Source: a virus
Reading direction: 5' to 3' (one strand)
Virus record (IMG/VR): IMGVR_UViG_3300020478_000094
Span: 1-20,159 of that record
Length of the DNA stretch: 20,159 nucleotides
The number at the start of each line of letters is the position of its first letter. Positions within the stretch are counted from its first letter, which is position 1. Position numbers and translations under genes: made by a program. This document shows, piece after piece, positions 1 through 17,161 of this stretch. The notes under the pieces are model-generated. The model searched no databases, was not told the origin of the DNA, and saw only the letters and a list, made by a program, of their open reading frames with translations.

Positions 1-962
1 GGAAAATCTATTATAATAAATCCCCAGGAATTATGATATGAACATCCATATAGGTATGCGTTACCATCAGATCGTGCTGCAGGTTTATAGTAATAACGAC
101 AACAATCTTTCCATTCAGTAGTATACTTTTTATGCTCAAAGTCAGTCGCATAATCTCCAACTTCTAACTGTAAGCCTGTAATTTCAAATGTTGCATCATT
201 CGTTGTCCACCAAGTAGATGTCATGTCTGGGAGAGTAGCCGACCCACTATATGTAATCCAGCTATTTGTAGAAACACCACTAGCTGTATGATCAGTCCCA
301 AGAAAAGGAACTATAATAAGACTTAACCCAAGACCATTATCATTATCAATTTGAAGATTAGAATTACCTGGTATAGTTGTTGTTATTTTTGTCCACGTGT
401 CTGCACTTAAAGTTATTGGAAAATTATAATTATAAGCTGTTCCATCCCAAGTTCTAAAGTATCCGTAGAAAGTCTGTCCAACACTTGATTTTGCCCAAAA
501 AGATACAGTGGCTTTACTTGAGCTAGAAGTATAATCCCAACCACTTGATACTATGTCTTGTGCTTCTAATGTATAATGTATATTTACAAAATCGGTTGCA
601 CCAGCACCACTTGTTTGGTTTCCATTTTGTATATGGAAAGAATGTCTAAATCCTTTCCCCCAGGGTCCAGTATCACTAGACGTTAAATCATGTTGTGATT
701 GGGTAATTGCTTCGTCAGTACCTCCAAAATCATTCTGGATTCTATCAACAGTTTTATATCCAGTTGCAGTAGATGTAGTAGCACGTTGTGCAACATTCAT
801 TGCACCATTAATTATTAAATTTCTATTAGGTAAGTTAGTGAATTTACCTGTATCTGCCGTAATAGTAGATCCAGTTACTGCACATTTACCGTTGGAAGCA
901 AGAGTTATTGCATCACTTGATGCACTTGTATGCCTGATTGCATCGACATTTATTTGACTCAT
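1..962 (-). CDS. Tail fibre / receptor-binding-like protein, 3' end missing
   Basis: A start codon at 962 opens a frame that stays open to the left edge: 320 codons are visible and no stop is reached. The start overlaps the stop of the 86-residue gene upstream (ATGA), which suggests coupled translation. Near residues 49-61 is NLIINGAMNVAQR, a motif I know from many phage tail and fibre proteins. It is followed by a Ser/Thr/Gly-rich, beta-rich stretch (about 80-250) resembling a jelly-roll or lectin-like domain. Near residues 259-290 is GLQLEVGDYATDFEH followed by a Cys-Cys-Arg-Tyr-Tyr-Tyr segment, the usual C-terminal signature of this family. That signature usually sits close to the C-terminus, so perhaps only a short tail is lost. 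It is likely a structural virion protein contacting the cell surface. The exact ligand cannot be read from the sequence. Confidence 0.8.
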   Translation of the reverse strand, partial: MSQINVDAIRHTSASSDAITLASNGKCAVTGSTITADTGKFTNLPNRNLIINGAMNVAQRATTSTATGYKTVDRIQNDFGGTDEAITQSQHDLTSSDTGPWGKGFRHSFHIQNGNQTSGAGATDFVNIHYTLEAQDIVSSGWDYTSSSSKATVSFWAKSSVGQTFYGYFRTWDGTAYNYNFPITLSADTWTKITTTIPGNSNLQIDNDNGLGLSLIIVPFLGTDHTASGVSTNSWITYSGSATLPDMTSTWWTTNDATFEITGLQLEVGDYATDFEHKKYTTEWKDCCRYYYKPAARSDGNAYLYGCSYHNSWGFIIIDF

Positions 963-1219
963 AATATTCTTTTGGTTTCAGGGAACATTGCATGTAATAT
1001 TGAATCAGGTGCAAAATTATCATCTATATGTTTTTGAGCTTCTGCTTTAGTTACAGTACGAGCTCCTCCATATAATTCCTTTTCTTGTGCCCATCTTTTT
1101 GCAGCTTTACTGTCATCTAAAACAATGACATTACAACCGACTTCTTCATATTCAAAAGTGTCCCTTCTTTTATCAATGAAATCTTTTCCTGAATTAGGAC
1201 ATATAACATAAATAGACAT
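959..1219 (-). CDS. Hypothetical 86-residue protein in the tail-fibre cassette
   Basis: I do not recognise this family. It is a small soluble-looking protein with no signal peptide or membrane segment, mixed charge, two cysteines (residues 7 and 29) and a C-terminal half rich in Lys, Glu and Asp. Its start overlaps the stop of the 381-residue kelch-like protein by one base (TAATG), and its own TGA stop overlaps the ATG of the next fibre gene. It is therefore translationally locked between two receptor-binding-type proteins. Small proteins in this position are often fibre chaperones or assembly factors. That role is inferred from position only. Confidence 0.7.
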   Translation of the reverse strand: MSIYVICPNSGKDFIDKRRDTFEYEEVGCNVIVLDDSKAAKRWAQEKELYGGARTVTKAEAQKHIDDNFAPDSILHAMFPETKRIL

Positions 1220-2364
1220 TATTCTGCTTCCTCCACTTGAATACTGCCAGAAGGTGCTAATTCTTCAACACTGTTTAAATATACAGCACCAGATACTTGA
1301 TAACCACCTATAACTAGTCCATTACCTGTAGTTCCTGTATCTCCCAGATTATTATTCCTTGAAGTGCTTAGGTTATCAAAAGCTGACCAGCTAGTTCCAT
1401 CATATTGTTCGCAAGAATTTGTATTAGTATTTGAATTTGGGTAACCTCCTGCACAAACAGCAGAAGTTTGAACTCCAATAGTTCCATTAGAATGTCTAGC
1501 AGTTCCTAATTGTCCTCCTTGACTCCATGAAGTACCATCATACTCATCAGAGTATCCATAATATCCACTAGCTAATGCACCTCCTACTTGAAGAGCTGCA
1601 TTTACAGTTCCACAAGCAGCATGACTACTCCTAACTGATGACAAAGCTCCACCTGTTGACCATGATGAGCCATCCCATTCTTGTGTAGTAGTAATTCTTT
1701 CACTAGCAGTATCGTTATACCCACCAGCTACTAATGCGGCTGTAGTTGTACCGCAGCTTGCTAATAATCTTACTGTTGTACCTATATTACTTGAAGCTGA
1801 CCATGAAGAACCATTCCATATTTCAGTTGCTGCAGTAACGGCACTTCCAGTATATCCAGCAAGCTTAAAAGCTGCTGATTGAGCACCTGTCATAGTACCC
1901 ATAGAAGTTGTTGTACCAGGTGCTGTAATAGATGACCATGAGGAACCATCATATGTATCACCACCAGCTTGAGTACCAGAACCGTTGGTATTACCAGTTG
2001 TTATTGTTGCTGTACCAGTTCCAGCTCCAGCTTTACCATATCCTGAATCTGGATGATTAGCTCCATTGCTCCAAGTACCAACAAGACCTGCTGTATAGAA
2101 ATGAAACTTCTTATCAGTATCATACCAAAAATCACCTGCACCTTTAGATGAATTAGCAGCACCAGTTAAAGTTAATTTAGAAAAGGAAGTAGGTTGAGTA
2201 ACCCATCCGAAATTTTTTGATCCGTCAGTTTTCAAGTATTGACCTGCTGATCCATCAGCTACAGGTAGCACGAAAGCTACATGGGCATTACCTGTTGTAG
2301 TTGATGGACCTTTGAGAGATATACTCCCACCGCCTGAATCAGCGGCTATTTTTACTTCTGCCAT
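1219..2364 (-). CDS. Kelch-like beta-propeller tail/fibre protein
   Basis: This 381-residue protein has a collar-like N-terminus (about 1-100) with a DGSAGQYLKTDG...GWV module also seen in the gp17-like fibre of this window. It then has five regularly spaced copies of an aromatic/Asp(Asn)-Gly-Ser/Thr-Ser-Trp-Ser motif at about residues 138, 183, 230, 275 and 321. The 45-47 residue period, with a GG-Tyr pair in most units, is the blade pattern of kelch-type beta-propellers. A sixth, less clear blade may follow at 350-368. It is probably a tail-tip or fibre ligand-binding protein. Start and stop overlap both neighbours: TAATG at 2364 with the 102-residue gene, and TAATG at 1219 with the 86-residue gene. 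The propeller fold is inferred from periodicity. A non-propeller repeat fibre remains possible. Confidence 0.8.
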   Translation of the reverse strand: MAEVKIAADSGGGSISLKGPSTTTGNAHVAFVLPVADGSAGQYLKTDGSKNFGWVTQPTSFSKLTLTGAANSSKGAGDFWYDTDKKFHFYTAGLVGTWSNGANHPDSGYGKAGAGTGTATITTGNTNGSGTQAGGDTYDGSSWSSITAPGTTTSMGTMTGAQSAAFKLAGYTGSAVTAATEIWNGSSWSASSNIGTTVRLLASCGTTTAALVAGGYNDTASERITTTQEWDGSSWSTGGALSSVRSSHAACGTVNAALQVGGALASGYYGYSDEYDGTSWSQGGQLGTARHSNGTIGVQTSAVCAGGYPNSNTNTNSCEQYDGTSWSAFDNLSTSRNNNLGDTGTTGNGLVIGGYQVSGAVYLNSVEELAPSGSIQVEEAE

Positions 2365-2672
2365 TATGGTTTAGGATATTTATCTTTGGTTGCTTTAATT
2401 GCTTTCGCAAATTCGCCTGTGGCATCGACCTTGCCAGCGATTATGTCTTTATAGAGAAGATCAAATTGTTCTGATAATGCAGGATATTCTATTTTCCTCT
2501 CATTCTTATATGTTTGTTTTGTAAATTCTGCGTCAACTGCTGACTGATCTATAGATAATACATCTTGACCTTTAAAAACTGTAAGTGTCCCATCTTTATT
2601 AGATCTACATCCTGTAGCATCTGGGTATAATTGATAGACAATATCGTGTTTAGTTACTGCAGTTTCAATCAT
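2364..2672 (-). CDS. Small tail-fibre-associated protein (YP..QxDxLY motif)
   Basis: I place the start at the ATG at 2672, giving 102 residues (MIETAV...), rather than at 2687. The codons after the 2687 ATG contain a strong Shine-Dalgarno sequence (GGGAGG) ideally spaced for the 2672 ATG, and the 2672 start forms an ATGA overlap with the stop of the 198-residue gene. The C-terminal half carries EYPALSEQFDLLYKDI, matching the YP-x-QxDxLY motif seen in many small proteins encoded next to phage tail fibres. I recall some of these as tail assembly or fibre-associated proteins, but their function is not firmly known. No membrane or signal sequence is visible. The stop overlaps the next start as TAATG. 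Confidence 0.75.
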   Translation of the reverse strand: MIETAVTKHDIVYQLYPDATGCRSNKDGTLTVFKGQDVLSIDQSAVDAEFTKQTYKNERKIEYPALSEQFDLLYKDIIAGKVDATGEFAKAIKATKDKYPKP

Positions 2673-3265
2673 GCTGATACCTCCCATAAGTTAAGAGTAC
2701 ATACATCATAATTATTTGTTCCAACATGATAACCTGTACCACTACTTGAATAACCAACAATAAAAATTCTATATGTTAAAGCACTTGTTGAGTTTGGTGA
2801 GTGTAGATAAGACCATGCTCCAGGACCGCCATGAGTTGCAGACGCATAGAAAACATAATCATCGTCACCACCATCTGTTATAGCTAAATAATCAGCTTGA
2901 CCATCTATTTTACATGCCATACTTACATAATCTGTACCATTACCTCTAACAACTCCTGTCCAATGAATTAAGACTTTATTACTTGTAGAGGACGGTGTTA
3001 TTGTTGTTGCTAGTCCTGTATCTACTGCATTATTTATACCCCAACCAGTAGCGGAAGTTTGGTTATCAATTGATGTTGATTGTAATTGTAAAAGTTTACC
3101 ACCTACACCTGATGCAAGTTTTCCTCCTGTTACATTTGCATCGAGTATCTTTGCAGTTGTTACCGCATTTGCTGCTAGAGCATCTGCGTCTATTGAGCCG
3201 TCAGGTACACCACCTACGGCTAATCCTCCGATAGTATTTGCACTACCATTTAAAACTAATGCCAT
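2669..3265 (-). CDS. Short tail-fibre-like protein with fibre repeat module
   Basis: This is a 198-residue protein. Residues about 20-60 (DGSIDADALAANAVTTAKI...) repeat the Ala/Asp/Ile-rich units of the gp17-like fibre encoded immediately upstream. The C-terminal part (about 60-198) is a Ser/Thr/Gly/Tyr-rich beta domain of the kind found in virion-attached receptor-binding proteins. The start codon shares one base with the gp17 stop (TAATG), so the two are probably made in a coupled way and assembled together. The short leader plus repeat plus globular head suggests a second, short fibre or a head that caps the main fibre. The sequence does not decide between these. Confidence 0.75.
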   Translation of the reverse strand: MALVLNGSANTIGGLAVGGVPDGSIDADALAANAVTTAKILDANVTGGKLASGVGGKLLQLQSTSIDNQTSATGWGINNAVDTGLATTITPSSTSNKVLIHWTGVVRGNGTDYVSMACKIDGQADYLAITDGGDDDYVFYASATHGGPGAWSYLHSPNSTSALTYRIFIVGYSSSGTGYHVGTNNYDVCTLNLWEVSA

Positions 3266-5847
3266 TAGCTAATCACCCAACGTCCGTTTACAGTTACAGT
3301 GGCGTTTAAAGTTATAGGACCAACACTGTGCGCCCCTTTAGTAGATGCTATTGTATGATCATCACTAATAGTTAAGTTATTCTCCCACATTGCACCGTTT
3401 GCTGTAGCAGCTACTACATCAGCCCATTCAGGATCATTAGCACCTATCTTAAGATATTGACCTGCTGTTCCTTTAGCTAATCTTTGATCTCCAGATGCAT
3501 CTCTAAAGAGTATGTCACCTCTAGTAGTTAAAGGTGTAGTATATTGAGCAGGTGAAGCCCATGTAAGACCACCTGTGTTACCTGATTGCTTCTGTAAATA
3601 CTGACCATCAGATCCAGCATTACTAATTTGAATTCTAGCTTCATCTACAGCTTCATCAGCTATATGTTCTTGAGCTACGGCATCATCAGCAAGTTTAGTA
3701 CCATCTATAGCATCTGCAGCAATCTTAGCAGTCGTAACTGCAAGGTTCTGTATCTTAGCTGTAGATACTGTGTTATCTCCTGGTGTAGGAATACTTACAG
3801 CAGAACCTATTTGTACTATAAATATACTAGAACCAACACCAGGTGCTGCACCAAATATAATAGTATTAGCATCTACAAGTGCAAAGCCTTCAGTAGGAGC
3901 ACTTGTTCCAGTATTAGCTTTCTGTACAACACCATTTATACTAACTATAAGTTGTGCTGCATTAGTTACACTAGCTGCACTACCTGAATTACTACCTTCT
4001 CTTAAATCAAATGTTGTATTAGTAAGTGTAGGTGCTCCAGTTCCACCTGTAGGACATAAGAATAGATACTTAAATTGACCTGTAGATGTTACTTCTTTCC
4101 ATGCTGATGTGGTGGTATCATACACCTTCATTTTATCAGCATTAGTATCATATACTAAATCACCTTCATGAAGACTAGAAGATGGTTCTCCTGCATGTAC
4201 ACGATATCTTTCATTAAAGTCATCAACTGCAGTTTTAGCAGAAGTAATATCAGCAGGTGCTAAAGTCTCTCTATGGAAAGTATATGTATGTAATGTAGAA
4301 GTTGTCTCAACTAATATACCTTTACCAGCTTCAATAGTATCGCTATTAGCCATACCATTAATAGTAACAGTATTACCTGTACCTGCGCCATTAGCTATTG
4401 TTGCTACACCACTACCATTAGAAGTAAGGTTACTAGCTAGTGCTTTTACACTGACAATAGTACCTGCATTATCTTCAGGATCTGGGTTAGTAGCAGGAAA
4501 ACTTGTTTCATTAGCTATAGGTCTAAAACCACCTACATCTGTTACTAAGTCTACTATCCTTTCTTCGACAGCTTGAGCTGTAGGAAGCTGTACATCAGTA
4601 GGGTTGCTAATTGATGTGACGATGCTCTTCCCATCCAGCAAGTTAAGCTCAGAAAGAGTAGCGGTAAGAGCAGTACTGCCCGCCAAAATAGAAGCAGTAC
4701 CTGCCTGCATACCAGCAAGCGTTGTGAGTTCAGCATCAGCTATATGTTCAGTTCCTATAGCATCATCAGCTATTTTAGCACTAGTAATTGCATCAGCTGC
4801 TATTTCAGAAGTACCAACAGTACCATTAGATGCTGCGGTTAATCTACCTTGAGCATCTACTGTAATATCAGCAGCAGTATAACTACCAGCAGTTACAGCT
4901 GTATTAGCTAGTTTATCTGCAGTTACTTGATCGTCAGCAATGTGAGCAGTGTCAATAGAACCGTCAACATAATGCTCAGAATTAATTGAATCATCAGCAA
5001 TCTTAGTTCCATCTACAGCATCAGCTGCAAGTTTAGCTGTTGTAACTGATGTATTACCTAGAGCTGTAGTGTCTACAGACCCTGCTGCATAATGTTCAGT
5101 ATCAATAGAATCGGCAACTAAGTGTTCTGAATCAATCGAATCGTCTGCTATCTTTGCTCCTGTTACAGCATCAGCATTAATCTTAGCTGTAGTTACTGCA
5201 TTAGATGCTATATGAGCTGCATCTATAGATCCATCTACATAGTGTTCTGAGTTGATAGAATCATCTGCTATCTTAGCTCCTGTTACAGCATCTGCTGCTA
5301 TATCAGCTGTAGCTATCGTACTATCAGCAATCATAGCTGAAGTTACAGTACCAGTGTCTCCAGTCGTTACTACTGTACCTGTTACGTTAGGTAAACTTAT
5401 AGTTCTATCAGCTGTAGGATCAACTACAGTTAATCTAGTTTCATGATCATTAGCAGTAGCTCCTTCAAATATAATATCAGCATCCTCATCCATCGTGAGG
5501 TCTCCAACCATGGTACCACCAAGGTTACTTAAATATCTAGCACTAATCTCTTGTGTTGAATATAGGTTTTGTGTAAAGTTATCATTTAGATCTTCTGACT
5601 TAATAGCTGATCCTGCATAGAATGTAGCTGTAAGCGCATCATCACTCGTTTCTCTATATATTTTGATTTTGGTGCCATTAGCTGGCGCAGTATTAAATTG
5701 TAATGTCGTAGCAGTTGGAAGGGTGAAAGCTGTTGTTACCGTAGCATCAAGTTGAGCTTTTATGTCTGCCGACTTAAGATATGGAAATGTGAAGGAATAA
5801 GTGGTGGTAGACCCATTCCCAACGTATGAATTTTGTGTAACAGCCAT
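3265..5847 (-). CDS. Tail fibre protein, T7 gp17-like N-terminus
   Basis: This 860-residue fibre begins with the conserved T7-type virion-anchoring domain (about residues 1-115: YVGNGSTTTYSFTFPYL, then a bound-residue pattern ending in KIKIYRET and SEDLNDNF). Next comes a short conserved segment with DLTMDEDADIIFEGAT. A long degenerate repeat array follows (about 160-380) built from units such as AADAVTGAKIADDSI and SEHYVDGSID, with a second small array near 690-740. The central and C-terminal parts contain the LVYDTNADKMKVYD module and two GQYL...W modules. The protein ends in a compact segment with NLTISDDHTIASTKG. By homology of the N-terminus and position after gp16, it attaches to the tail and binds the host cell. 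No tailspike-type enzyme motif is visible. It starts six bases after the gp16-like stop. Confidence 0.9.
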   Translation of the reverse strand: MAVTQNSYVGNGSTTTYSFTFPYLKSADIKAQLDATVTTAFTLPTATTLQFNTAPANGTKIKIYRETSDDALTATFYAGSAIKSEDLNDNFTQNLYSTQEISARYLSNLGGTMVGDLTMDEDADIIFEGATANDHETRLTVVDPTADRTISLPNVTGTVVTTGDTGTVTSAMIADSTIATADIAADAVTGAKIADDSINSEHYVDGSIDAAHIASNAVTTAKINADAVTGAKIADDSIDSEHLVADSIDTEHYAAGSVDTTALGNTSVTTAKLAADAVDGTKIADDSINSEHYVDGSIDTAHIADDQVTADKLANTAVTAGSYTAADITVDAQGRLTAASNGTVGTSEIAADAITSAKIADDAIGTEHIADAELTTLAGMQAGTASILAGSTALTATLSELNLLDGKSIVTSISNPTDVQLPTAQAVEERIVDLVTDVGGFRPIANETSFPATNPDPEDNAGTIVSVKALASNLTSNGSGVATIANGAGTGNTVTINGMANSDTIEAGKGILVETTSTLHTYTFHRETLAPADITSAKTAVDDFNERYRVHAGEPSSSLHEGDLVYDTNADKMKVYDTTTSAWKEVTSTGQFKYLFLCPTGGTGAPTLTNTTFDLREGSNSGSAASVTNAAQLIVSINGVVQKANTGTSAPTEGFALVDANTIIFGAAPGVGSSIFIVQIGSAVSIPTPGDNTVSTAKIQNLAVTTAKIAADAIDGTKLADDAVAQEHIADEAVDEARIQISNAGSDGQYLQKQSGNTGGLTWASPAQYTTPLTTRGDILFRDASGDQRLAKGTAGQYLKIGANDPEWADVVAATANGAMWENNLTISDDHTIASTKGAHSVGPITLNATVTVNGRWVIS
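3620..3790 (-). repeat. Second fibre repeat block (coding)
   Basis: Within the fibre gene, residues about 690-740 again show the ADAIDGTKLADDAV / QEHIADEAVDEARI type of unit, separated by some 300 residues of unrelated sequence from the larger array. This suggests internal duplication or exchange of a repeat module. Confidence 0.65.
4715..5365 (-). repeat. Degenerate coding repeat array in tail fibre
   Basis: Residues about 161-378 of the fibre are imperfect repeats with consensus A-D-A-V-T-x-A-K-I-A-D-D-S-I followed by a variable x-E-H-Y/I-x-D/A-G-S-I-D unit. On the DNA this appears as recurring 'atctgctgc' / 'catcagcaat' / 'atagtgttc' words. The DNA copies are diverged at many third positions, so this is an old protein repeat kept by selection, not a recent tandem duplication. 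Confidence 0.85.
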
Positions 5848-13697: not shown

Positions 13698-16532
13698 TTA
13701 TAACCTCTTATAGAATCGTGGAGAGTAGTTACCTTCCCACATCATTGAATTTAACGAGGCAGGGAATGGTGAGTCATTGAATAATCTCACTTGAAAGTTT
13801 TCTGTTTTTTGATGGATAGGTAAGACAAATACTGATTGTTCTGATATAGCAATATCATTAGCTAAATAAGTATCTGCTATTTGTGTAGGTGATAAGTTAT
13901 ACCATTCATCTAGGTAGATAAGTATATCATCAGCACTATATATTATAACTCTAGCACCTGTTGTAACTGCAGCAGGAGCTCCAGTACCATCAATGAAAAT
14001 AACATTTTTACCAGTTATTCTGAAATGAGTACCTTCTGTTTGAGTTTGATATAAGTTAGTACCGTTACCTGTTTCTTTTAATACTTTTATTTTAGTAACA
14101 TCTGTTCTATCAAATGTCCATGCAAATGTAGTATCACCAGCACTAGCTGTAAAAGTTTGAGATGGTATAGAATTAAGTCTTATAGTTGTATCATTAACAA
14201 AAGTAAAAGCAGTAGATTCTATATTATTTATCTTTACTTTTACTTGATCTCTATCCACATAACTTAGATCATCATTAATAAATGGGAAATCAGTTGTAGT
14301 ATAATCACCAGTATAAGTCTTCTTTCCTTGTCTTACACCAGTAGATTTAACTTTAAAACCCATAACTCCTGAAAGACCAACAGCAAATTTCATTCTAGAT
14401 ATTGTTAACCTGGCTGTAAAATCAGTCATGGTTTTTGCATCATCTAGTCTAAAGTAAGTCTTAGGTAAGGTTACATCTAAATCATATTTCCATCCTACAA
14501 TAACATCATCCTCAACACCTGTTAAATCTTTACCTACAACTTTAAAATAAGGATCACCATCATTAGTTATTACAGTTGGTGTAGTAGTGAAACCAGATTC
14601 AATAAACTGACCTGTAGCTGTAGTACCTTTAATTACTATAACAGGTGTTAATGTAGAGATATTATCCCATGGTATGAAACATTTAGAGAAGTCATTAGTA
14701 GAATCATAATCTACTTTATTATTTCCTGCAACATTACTAGCTTCAGTATATAAATCCATACAAGGATTAATCTTTTGTCCTTGGTTATTAACAATGATAG
14801 CATCATCTGGACTTTGACTTAGACTTGCTTTACTTAATGTTACTTGTGTACCTTGTTTAGTTACTGCAAATAAATCGTCTTGATCAACAAATATTGTTTG
14901 TACGTTTCCTGGGAGTTGCCAATTAAACCACGCTTGTACTAGGCTCTTTTCTCCGTCACTATATGTACGATAGAAATATACCTTGTCAGAAGATTGACTT
15001 GACAGTGCGAGGAATTGATTCTGAGGGCTAGCAATGAACGTATCCACTGTAGCGGGTACCCACTCATTTACAATTCTTCCAACGTCTAATACTTCAGGGT
15101 TCTCATCTTGACCACGTGTGGCCATACCAAATATACGAGTGTAGCTAGGCGTTTTACTTATGAAATTTATATGTGTTCCTATATCTACAGGATTAATTTC
15201 TGTGTCTACTTCATAGTTAGAGAGTGCTCTGATCGTAGTCTTTGTTGGAGTCAAAACCATATCATCAGCTGACATGAGGAATTGCTGATTCTTACTAAAG
15301 AGTACTAGACCCTGTGTAGTAGGTATCACCGCATGTAGAGCTGCAGGTCGGATTGTTGAACAACTTAAATCGACTGGATCTGCATCTGTAATTGTTTGAG
15401 CAGATTCAAAATAGAAATTAAAACGTTTACCAGCTCTTCCCATGATTACATTATCTTCTGATAAGAATCCTAATCTATTATTATGGAAGAAGCTTTGCTG
15501 TATTTTATTACCTAGAAAACTAGGATGTTCGTTTGTTACATCATCTCCTACTAATCTATCAGCCCATGTAACTGCTTTAAATGTGAAAGCATTTGCACCA
15601 GTATTGACTAATTGATGAGGCATAGTAGAAGCTGTTAAGCCTGGAGACTTACTAGGATCTATAGTTTCAGGCCAAGATCCAGGTCCAGACGTACCATCAA
15701 TAGCTGAAAATTTAACCCAATATGAATCTTCAGCTAATTTAGCAGTATTTGTAATTTTTATAGTATGACCATCAAAGGATTCAAGAGGTAAATCTTCTAT
15801 ACCATTTACTTCATCTTGAAAGACTCTTATAGAATCTCCTTGAGGACCACCTGTTGCACTGATAGCAATGGCTGTTGACTTAGATACCTGCAATGTAGAT
15901 TTATATTTTGTTACAGTTATACCTGTTATACTTGCAGCATCTATTGAAGCTTTTATTTTTGTTAAAGCATCATCATAGGTATCATCACTATCTGTAGTAG
16001 TGTTAGTCGTAGTACCATCTATTATAACAGTATAAGTATTACTTATAGATGATCCGTTCAATACAAGTGTAGCTTGTTTCTTTGCTACAAATGTAGGATC
16101 AGCTTGTTTAGTTACTGTTATTAAATTGTTTGTAATTATAGATGTATCTTGTAAATTGAGTACATGATAATTCTCACGTGCTCCTGTTAAGTAATCATAA
16201 TCTGAACTATTTTCAGTTACAGAACAAGCTGCACCTGTAGTAGCATTCCATATAGCTATAGTACCATGCGGACCACTGTTAGGTTTAGGTGTAATACATC
16301 CTATATATTTATTTGTAGCATCTCTATTGATATAAAACCAATAGGAGGAATCATATGTAGTACCAGAACCTAAGTTAGAAATCCATTTAAAGCCTGGTCT
16401 TTTAGTTAAACCAAACGTTGGGTCTGGATAACCATTAAGACACTCTCGGACTTGACCTGGAAGCTTCTTATCATCAGATTGTCTAGATACTCCACCTAAG
16501 TAATTGTCAATTCGTTGAGTTACAGCTGGCAT
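13698..16532 (-). CDS. Tail tubular protein B, T7 gp12-like (nozzle)
   Basis: This 944-residue protein has the conserved N-terminus of this family (about residues 8-50: DNYLGGVSRQSDD, then LPGQVRECLNGYPDPTFGLTKRPGF). It forms the tail nozzle below the gp11 ring. It is about 150 residues longer than T7 gp12 (about 794). The extra length fits a segment at about 735-870 that looks like two successive copies of the fibre N-terminal-type beta domain (pattern Tyr/Phe-x-Gly/Ala-Asp-x-Thr-Thr-x-Phe, then strands ending Val-x-Ile-Tyr-Ser). The C-terminus (YSPRFYKRL) is compact and basic. The start shares one base with the tail tube A stop (TAATG), so the two tail proteins are coupled. Confidence 0.92.
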   Translation of the reverse strand: MPAVTQRIDNYLGGVSRQSDDKKLPGQVRECLNGYPDPTFGLTKRPGFKWISNLGSGTTYDSSYWFYINRDATNKYIGCITPKPNSGPHGTIAIWNATTGAACSVTENSSDYDYLTGARENYHVLNLQDTSIITNNLITVTKQADPTFVAKKQATLVLNGSSISNTYTVIIDGTTTNTTTDSDDTYDDALTKIKASIDAASITGITVTKYKSTLQVSKSTAIAISATGGPQGDSIRVFQDEVNGIEDLPLESFDGHTIKITNTAKLAEDSYWVKFSAIDGTSGPGSWPETIDPSKSPGLTASTMPHQLVNTGANAFTFKAVTWADRLVGDDVTNEHPSFLGNKIQQSFFHNNRLGFLSEDNVIMGRAGKRFNFYFESAQTITDADPVDLSCSTIRPAALHAVIPTTQGLVLFSKNQQFLMSADDMVLTPTKTTIRALSNYEVDTEINPVDIGTHINFISKTPSYTRIFGMATRGQDENPEVLDVGRIVNEWVPATVDTFIASPQNQFLALSSQSSDKVYFYRTYSDGEKSLVQAWFNWQLPGNVQTIFVDQDDLFAVTKQGTQVTLSKASLSQSPDDAIIVNNQGQKINPCMDLYTEASNVAGNNKVDYDSTNDFSKCFIPWDNISTLTPVIVIKGTTATGQFIESGFTTTPTVITNDGDPYFKVVGKDLTGVEDDVIVGWKYDLDVTLPKTYFRLDDAKTMTDFTARLTISRMKFAVGLSGVMGFKVKSTGVRQGKKTYTGDYTTTDFPFINDDLSYVDRDQVKVKINNIESTAFTFVNDTTIRLNSIPSQTFTASAGDTTFAWTFDRTDVTKIKVLKETGNGTNLYQTQTEGTHFRITGKNVIFIDGTGAPAAVTTGARVIIYSADDILIYLDEWYNLSPTQIADTYLANDIAISEQSVFVLPIHQKTENFQVRLFNDSPFPASLNSMMWEGNYSPRFYKRL

Positions 16533-17161
16533 TATCTTTGAAGTGCTTGGAAAGGTTGATAACTTTGATAGTAATTCTGTTGTCCTTGTGGGTGTCCAAA
16601 GAAAGTATACTGTCCTTGTTGTGTTTCATATTCTAAAGCTGTTGCTCTTGCATAAGCTTCTTGTTGTTGTAGCATTTGGTATTGATCTGCATTTCCTATA
16701 ATCCGTTGGGATACAAGGGAAGCAGTTCTAGATACAATGAAATTCTGTATAGGTTCAGGTAGATCTACCCAGTCAAATTCCCATACAATATCACACTCTA
16801 CTTCATCTCCTGATATTTCACTTAGATCATATGTGTGATGCTGTCTATCATATAGCTTACCATTACGTCTTACACAATCGAATTCTGCATTAGCAGAGTT
16901 CTCAGTAAGTTTAATTTGAAGCATATTAGCTGGTATTACTATTTCATTATCAGAATTTCTAGCTACTTTATAATGGTATTCTTTATTAAATGTCCAGCCT
17001 TCTGCCTGTATCTCTTTTGATACCTGTAATAACGTATCGTATGCAATCGCAACGTCAGGGTTGGTTGTGTCCAACGTGGTTACAGGTGCCTGACCACATG
17101 ATGACAGTATCTGGTTTATGGCTGGTAATTCGGCAGTGGCATTAGTGGTTGGAAAAGGCAT
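16532..17161 (-). CDS. Tail tubular protein A, T7 gp11-like (adaptor ring)
   Basis: This 209-residue protein matches T7 gp11 (about 196) in length and position after the capsid gene. The N-terminal stretch (ATAELPAINQILSSCGQAPV) and the later GWTFNKEYHYKV pattern are characteristic of this family, which bridges the portal and the tail nozzle. The C-terminal 30 residues are rich in Gln, Tyr and Phe (GQQNYYQSYQPF), a low-complexity tail of unknown role. No Shine-Dalgarno precedes the ATG at 17161. The gene starts 52 bases after the capsid stop, beyond a stable hairpin, and its TAA stop overlaps the next start. Confidence 0.92.
   Translation of the reverse strand: MPFPTTNATAELPAINQILSSCGQAPVTTLDTTNPDVAIAYDTLLQVSKEIQAEGWTFNKEYHYKVARNSDNEIVIPANMLQIKLTENSANAEFDCVRRNGKLYDRQHHTYDLSEISGDEVECDIVWEFDWVDLPEPIQNFIVSRTASLVSQRIIGNADQYQMLQQQEAYARATALEYETQQGQYTFFGHPQGQQNYYQSYQPFQALQR

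What the first reader, a model, noticed from the sequence alone, without database searches (positions are those of the whole stretch)
13930..14330. Tail tube B carries two fibre-anchor-like domains in tandem
Residues about 735-870 show two copies of the strand pattern that forms the virion-binding N-terminus of the gp17-like fibre in this same window. This accounts for most of the extra length over T7 gp12. It suggests that the nozzle and the fibre attach through like-with-like domains, or that the fibre domain was captured.
Basis: partly seen in the sequence, partly recalled or inferred. Interest (0 to 1): 0.5.

Follow-up and report, generated by a model that had tools for sequence, protein, structure and literature searches.

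The report
Phage nozzle with captured fibre-anchor domains
The tail nozzle of this uncultured marine T7-like virus carries two copies, one nested inside the other, of the small domain that normally anchors the tail fibre, apparently captured from a fibre gene and passed between related viruses as a cassette.

Summary
Nozzle (gp12-like) residues 737-876 are two copies of the beta-sandwich that starts the gp17-like fibre, and account for about 138 of the 150 residues by which this nozzle exceeds T7 gp12. A fibre profile run against whole nozzles finds these two places; controls do not. Of 50 single-copy relatives, 47 match PHROG tail-fibre families; plain BLASTP reaches 56% identity to a cyanophage fibre. 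One correction: copy B is not in simple tandem but nested in the last loop of copy A. Relatives have 0, 1 or 2 copies in the same platform hairpin; in P-SCSP1u that hairpin touches the adaptor beside the fibre. Most two-copy cassettes form one clade in a domain tree although their nozzles are scattered, so they travel by recombination. Copy A co-varies with the fibre N-terminus beyond the nozzle background (n=34, partial r 0.52), about as strongly as the best adaptor window. Best reading: a captured fibre-anchor sandwich, without its helical part, now an extra pad on the nozzle at the fibre base. Homology is shown and capture likely; contact with the fibre is inferred. An exposed decoration is the main rival. 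New variant of a known kind.

The parts
13698..16532 (-). Nozzle protein (T7 gp12 / tail tubular protein B homologue), 944 aa
   Evidence: Pfam Phage_nozzle PF25675 E 2.8e-185; PDB 8i4m_A E 7.6e-59; full model matches nozzle structures
14172..14324 (-). Copy A, first part (residues 737-787): fibre-anchor-like beta-sandwich inserted in a hairpin of the platform domain
   Evidence: hhalign, PF03906 match at 14157-14318, strands E738-741 to E783-786
13929..14171 (-). Copy B (residues 788-868): second fibre-anchor-like sandwich, nested in the last loop of copy A; a second copy is present in 35 of 130 distinct nozzles
   Evidence: hhalign; AF2 plus VIA-align Z 9.3 to T7 gp17 N-terminus 7boz_b; copy counts by length
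13905..13928 (-). Copy A, closing strand (residues 869-876)
   Evidence: Alignment of one- and two-copy nozzles; strand E869-874 after all of copy B
13701..13904 (-). Rest of the C-terminal platform (residues 877-944)
   Evidence: Aligned with T7 and P-SCSP1u C-termini
3265..5847 (-). gp17-like tail fibre, 860 aa; the kind of gene from which the domain is thought to have been captured
   Evidence: PF03906 E 5.5e-15 at residues 4-101; 8i4m_e E 1.6e-50
5542..5841 (-). Fibre N-terminal anchor (sandwich plus helical part)
   Evidence: PF03906 60.7 bits, profile 3-108
16532..17161 (-). Adaptor (T7 gp11 homologue), expected neighbour of the insertion hairpin
   Evidence: Pfam Tube PF17212 E 3.5e-36; contact by analogy with P-SCSP1u D737-N24

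Best explanation
The nozzle carries a captured beta-sandwich of the T7-fibre N-terminal (anchor) family, set into a hairpin of its platform domain at the nozzle-adaptor-fibre junction. A second, more variable sandwich is nested inside the first. If the tail is built as in P-SCSP1u, with six nozzle subunits and six fibre trimers, this puts twelve sandwiches round the fibre bases. Copy A most likely packs against the fibre's own N-terminal sandwiches and/or the adaptor fibre dock and holds or orients the fibre base. Copy B is an accessory, swappable module further out. SHOWN by computation: homology, nesting, 0/1/2 states, spread of the cassette by recombination, purifying selection on both copies, co-variation of A with the fibre N-terminus. 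INFERRED: direction of capture, physical contact with the fibre, stabilising role, outward place of B.
For: Homology; 47 of 50 single-copy domains match tail-fibre PHROGs at E<=0.01; 49 of 50 match PF03906 at E<=1, best 5.2e-10; up to 55.6% identity. With a nozzle domain as query, 43 of 53 matching phage records are labelled tail fibre at the match, one nozzle, nine unlabelled or hypothetical. Zero-copy relatives: S-B28, S-CBP3. Site: between R736 and D737 of P-SCSP1u, where D737 hydrogen-bonds adaptor N24 (PMC10575957, passages). Cassette exchange: L010 against L025 is 94% identical over residues 1-736, 49% in copy A, 92% after it, and the same pattern in DNA; the AU test rejects one clade for 19 type-2 nozzles on the backbone, p 7e-45. 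Selection: median dN/dS 0.20-0.22 for A, 0.27-0.44 for B, 0.18-0.24 backbone. Co-variation of A with the fibre N-terminus given the backbone: r 0.44, n=22, 0 of 33 nozzle windows reach it; new loci r 0.57, n=12, 1 of 33; combined r 0.52, n=34, 0 of 33; intervening genes 0 of 114 windows; distal fibre 0.16 (n=32); the adaptor, a known fibre partner, has windows up to 0.52.
Against: The fibre-contact step rests on a distance correlation with modest n, overlapping windows and a test known (recalled) to be liberal. One nozzle window reaches 0.70 in the new set of 12 and a gp14-like window 0.50 in the combined set. The fibre's helical part, which the nozzle copies lack, also co-varies (0.40 against 0.50 for the sandwich). 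A with the adaptor also gives p 0.0005, yet 9 of 33 other nozzle windows do as well or better. In P-SCSP1u the F3 sandwich makes no hydrogen bond with the nozzle, so such contact is not needed in a related phage. Copy A of a genome is no closer to its own fibre than to others (0.308 against 0.317). The platform is poorly modelled (several stretches under pLDDT 50). The fibre profile misses 9 of 132 nozzles at E<=1e-3, all two-copy.
Confidence: 0.55

Rival explanations
1. Exposed decoration: the sandwiches project from the tail and bind the host surface weakly, as proposed for Ig-like domains on other phages (recalled); they do not touch the fibre.
For: Copy B comes in two subtypes, is gained or lost often (label 'two' needs 14 changes, 13 forced by starred branches, quick tree) and has the highest dN/dS. 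A second nozzle site in relatives takes unrelated modules, one carbohydrate-binding-like by eye. Weak rows to carbohydrate-binding family CBM_X2 in 3 of 28 two-copy segments (best E 0.016).
Against: Copy A is found in 132 of 132 nozzles of this set by its profile (the set was picked by likeness), is consistent with one origin, and co-varies with the fibre N-terminus. No ligand-binding family matched better than the weak rows named.
Confidence: 0.25
2. Neutral plug-in: a platform loop that tolerates insertions; the domains have no specific role.
For: Zero-copy relatives exist in culture; repeated gain and loss of B.
Against: Purifying selection on both copies; A kept in 132 of 132 nozzles of the set; A-fibre co-variation.
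Confidence: 0.12
3. Not a capture from the fibre gene: both derive independently from a sandwich common in phage tail proteins.
For: Similar sandwiches occur in T4 and P1 baseplates and a tailspike at Z 6.8-7.9 (the tool warns that Z under 8 may be a common arrangement) and in the nozzle of cyanophage A4, 9k09_U residues 741-821, Z 8.9. The origin of copy B is unresolved (A and B as one clade not rejected, AU p 0.44).
Against: Copy A is up to 55.6% identical to cyanophage fibre N-termini by BLASTP, while the A4 nozzle gives no significant match to the profiles (best E 0.054).
Confidence: 0.08

Closest known systems
T7 gp17 tail fibre N-terminal domain (Pfam PF03906; 7boz)
   Same: Same sandwich fold: copy B against 7boz_b Z 9.3, rmsd 2.0 over 71 residues; 7ey9_a, titled only 'tail proteins', Z 10.5. 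Of 50 single-copy nozzle domains, 49 match PF03906 at E<=1 (best 5.2e-10)
   Different: In the nozzle only the sandwich is kept (profile 10-63 of 157), it is internal not N-terminal, and in a nozzle rather than a trimeric fibre
P-SCSP1u nozzle gp23 (8i4m_A) and T7 gp12 nozzle (6r21)
   Same: Same nozzle family
   Different: No insert: residues R736 and D737 of P-SCSP1u are adjacent where the window has 140 residues
Nozzles of Synechococcus phage S-B28 (MK016662) and of uncultured phage S28-C3 (AP013539)
   Same: 54.1% identity over 85% and 51.2% over 92% of the window nozzle
   Different: S-B28 has no copy; S28-C3 has copy A only
Cyanophage A4 (Anabaena A-4L) tail tubular protein B, 9k09_U
   Same: A solved nozzle with a sandwich at residues 741-821 like copy B (Z 8.9, rmsd 1.8 over 68; chain identity)
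   Different: Other virus family (Saffermanviridae), no significant profile match; whether it is an insert at the same site was not tested
Ig-like domains inserted in phage structural proteins (Fraser et al. 2006; recalled, seen only as a reference in passages of PMC10684548)
   Same: Promiscuous beta-sandwich modules in virion proteins
   Different: Here the module is of the fibre-anchor family and nested in itself

Membership tests
T7-like nozzle (Phage_nozzle PF25675) | Match over most of the profile above the curated cut-off | tested here: met
   618 bits against cut-off 27, best stretch profile 1-777 of 794
T7-like nozzle (Phage_nozzle PF25675) | Gene order adaptor, nozzle, internal proteins, fibre | tested here: met
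   Adaptor, nozzle and fibre by family match in the order of P-SSP7 and T7; the internal proteins are named by position only
T7 fibre N-terminal domain (PF03906) | Sequence match above the curated cut-off (window copy A) | tested here: inconclusive
   18 bits against 25.2, E 0.0024; E 4.6e-5 in the window search; the best single-copy relative reaches 5.2e-10
T7 fibre N-terminal domain (PF03906) | Beta-sandwich fold | tested here: met
   Copy B Z 9.3 to 7boz_b (T7 gp17 N-terminus) and Z 8.9 to residues 2-78 of 8i4m_M, taken to be the P-SCSP1u fibre; copy A has the same strand order but was not aligned on its own
T7 fibre N-terminal domain (PF03906) | Helical segment after the sandwich | tested here: not met
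   Matches stop at profile 63; 38 of the 40 best BLASTP rows end at fibre residue 63-69, two run to 86; the model goes straight on to a platform strand
T7 fibre N-terminal domain (PF03906) | Binds adaptor/nozzle fibre docks | not testable with these tools
   Co-variation only

The most novel reading that the evidence does not exclude
Copy A is a nozzle-borne mimic of a fibre subunit: it packs beside each fibre trimer as a pseudo-subunit that fixes the fibre's pose before infection, and the A(+B) cassette is traded between marine podoviruses so that nozzle and fibre base stay matched, a recombining docking interface.
Probability: 0.35. Interest if true: 0.78.

Novelty: new variant of a known kind. 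Interest (0 to 1): 0.6.

Why it matters
Tail nozzles are usually treated as a conserved conduit and fibres as the variable part. Here a fibre-anchor domain sits inside the nozzle, in 0, 1 or 2 copies among relatives, at the junction where fibre movement is thought to trigger DNA release. If copy A touches the fibre, these natural 0/1/2 states give a direct way to test how the fibre base signals to the nozzle.

Tried and rejected
Chance or motif likeness: rejected by profile controls. Simple tandem duplication: rejected, since the A closing strand follows B. Gene conversion between A and the fibre of the same genome: no sign (own 0.308, other 0.317, permutation p 0.858). A special link of copy A with the adaptor: not found (9 of 33 windows as high or higher).

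Foldseek on the segment model gave no PDB hit under E 0.001; the fold case for copy B rests on VIA-align, whose rows barely test copy A. The viral structure library gave 26 hits under E 0.001, those listed with large rmsd, of little use. Whether A and B share one origin could not be settled (60 columns, long branches). Literature searches (open-access library, capped listings) listed nothing that by title or abstract start describes fibre-like domains in a T7-like nozzle; no paper with 'cyanophage A4' was found. Four papers were seen as passages only: PMC10575957, PMC6702177, PMC10684548 (no 'nozzle' in it) and PMC3909814.

Dropped rows: L032 and L069 (no complete single frame); L005 from alignments A1 and A2 (X residues); A2 held 56 of 79 nozzles; S-RIP1 left out of the named set (broken frame), and not every listed record was fetched; of 65 complete new nozzles 53 were new and distinct; the dN/dS sets leave out L005, L008 and L017 and the pairs named; L017, whose B is of type 2 but whose A is not in the type-2 clade, was left out of the type-2 AU test.

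Full report
OBSERVATION. The window is a 20,159-base linear virus record. On the minus strand adaptor, nozzle, further ORFs and fibre follow the T7 order. The nozzle (944 aa) matches Phage_nozzle PF25675, the fibre (860 aa) PF03906 at residues 4-101 and the adaptor PF17212. Nozzle residues 737-876 hold two copies of the fibre's first domain. A comparison of the fibre N-terminal profile with whole nozzle profiles finds these places, every other row being at 0.1%, far above shuffled, reversed and zero-copy controls.

HOMOLOGY. Single-copy relatives make it plain. Of 50 single-copy domains, 47 match PHROG tail-fibre families 21412 and 2710 at E<=0.01 and 49 match PF03906 at E<=1, best 5.2e-10 (the one shown in full, L034, scores 21.8 bits, under the cut-off of 25.2). 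Of 28 two-copy segments 19 match PF03906 at E<=1, best 3.5e-6. BLASTP of nozzles against 18 fibres finds the fibre N-terminus at up to 55.6% identity over 63 residues (L075 against S-B28, 1.9e-14 in that small set); the window's own copy A gives 34.5%, 2.3e-6. With the L034 nozzle domain as query 53 phage records match: AP013539 best in its nozzle (it has two places), 43 labelled tail fibre, nine hypothetical, predicted or unannotated. Copy B is more divergent (hhalign 94% to the fibre, 97% to single-copy A, 66% to two-copy A). Over 132 nozzles the single-copy profile hits all 132 at E<=1e-3 and the fibre profile 123, the nine misses being two-copy.

STRUCTURE. AlphaFold on residues 725-892 with 28 sequences gives pLDDT 83.9. 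Copy B superposes on the T7 gp17 N-terminus (7boz_b, Z 9.3, 2.0 A, 71 residues), on 7ey9_a (Z 10.5, titled 'tail proteins'), on residues 2-78 of 8i4m_M (Z 8.9, 1.6 A, 68; taken to be the P-SCSP1u fibre) and on chains of other podophage tail complexes. Foldseek alone gave no hit under E 0.001. Copy A shows the same strand order but was not aligned on its own. The full-length model (pLDDT 71.7) matches nozzle structures (8i4m_A first). Its strands show nesting: platform 723-732, A 738-786, B 791-866, A closing strand 869-874, platform 877-885.

SITE. Of 16 named nozzles compared, 15 lack the insert and one (AP013539) has one copy. In P-SCSP1u the site lies between R736 and D737. The paper (PMC10575957, passages) says D737 hydrogen-bonds adaptor N24, that fibre helices touch adaptors and the nozzle platform, and that F1 and F2 sandwiches bind adaptor docks, while F3's makes no hydrogen bond with the nozzle. 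In T7 the platform is a C-terminal jelly roll with three N-terminal strands (PMC6702177, passages).

EVOLUTION. Four scans chosen by likeness to window-type nozzles gave 132 nozzles, 130 distinct: by length of the region 95 have one copy, 35 two, none zero. On a backbone tree of 86 rows the three states need 16 changes (quick tree, SH-aLRT only). In the domain tree copy A is one clade (96/94), B has two subtypes (98/97 and 99/98), and the 18 distinct type-2 A copies form one clade (100/90), although the backbone rejects one clade for the 19 type-2 nozzles (AU p 7e-45). For the window's subtype, seven of nine nozzles are a backbone clade and the nine together are rejected (p 3.6e-5). L017 has a type-2 B in an A of another kind, so B can also move on its own. 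L010 and L025 are mostly 85-100% alike in 100-base DNA windows except in the cassette, 65-72%. So the cassette moves by recombination between nozzle genes. Both copies are under purifying selection, B less so.

CO-VARIATION. If copy A touches the fibre, the two should diverge together beyond the nozzle background. They do: partial r 0.44 (n=22, p 0.0005), still 0.35-0.37 without basal rows and 0.41-0.49 on dropping single rows. New loci agree (n=12, r 0.57, p 0.001; one of 33 control windows is higher, 0.70). Combined r is 0.52 (n=34), no nozzle window reaching it (largest 0.25). Of the intervening genes 0 of 114 windows reach it (largest 0.50, gp14-like; the gp15-like gene in 18 rows only); the adaptor's best window is 0.52; the distal fibre gives 0.16 (n=32); within the fibre N-terminus the sandwich gives 0.50 and the helical part 0.40. 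Windows overlap and the test is liberal, so this is suggestive. Copy A is not unusual against the adaptor (r 0.23, p 0.0005, but 9 of 33 nozzle windows as high or higher).

READING. Capture of the fibre-anchor sandwich by the nozzle is very likely (about 0.9). Packing on the fibre base is the likeliest role (about 0.55); exposed adhesion comes next. The copies lack the fibre's helical part, so they are anchor-like pads rather than complete anchors. A solved nozzle of another virus family, cyanophage A4, also has such a sandwich, so nozzles may have gained it more than once.

Noticed in passing
L029, L065, L070 and L045, L064, L080, nozzle near window residues 84-111: A second nozzle insertion site holds unrelated modules of about 57-74 residues: one Gly/Thr-rich, one with a W..Y..GD..Y.C pattern that looks carbohydrate-binding-like by eye.
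   Followed up: no
window 3745-4017 (fibre residues about 611-701): The fibre seems to hold a further sandwich of the same general kind inside (phrog_18673 E 2.4e-12); the copy B profile has 18 hits away from the N-terminus in ORFs of relatives, mostly in the like region of fibres.
   Followed up: partly
L179:29973-33020 (Anabaena phage A-4L, 9k09_U): Solved nozzle of another virus family with a sandwich at 741-821 that resembles copy B.
   Followed up: partly
L173 about 560-3088 (Synechococcus phage S-RIP1): The nozzle is not annotated and its open pieces lie in two frames (112 and 778 aa).
   Followed up: no
window fibre, residues about 192-290: Three repeats of the type KIADDSINSEH in the fibre, starting at residues 192, 232 and 282.
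   Followed up: no
window 16532-17161 (adaptor) and nozzle residues 23-110: N-terminal nozzle stretches co-vary with the adaptor more than most others (partial r up to 0.45, n=77), as expected if they form the platform.
   Followed up: no
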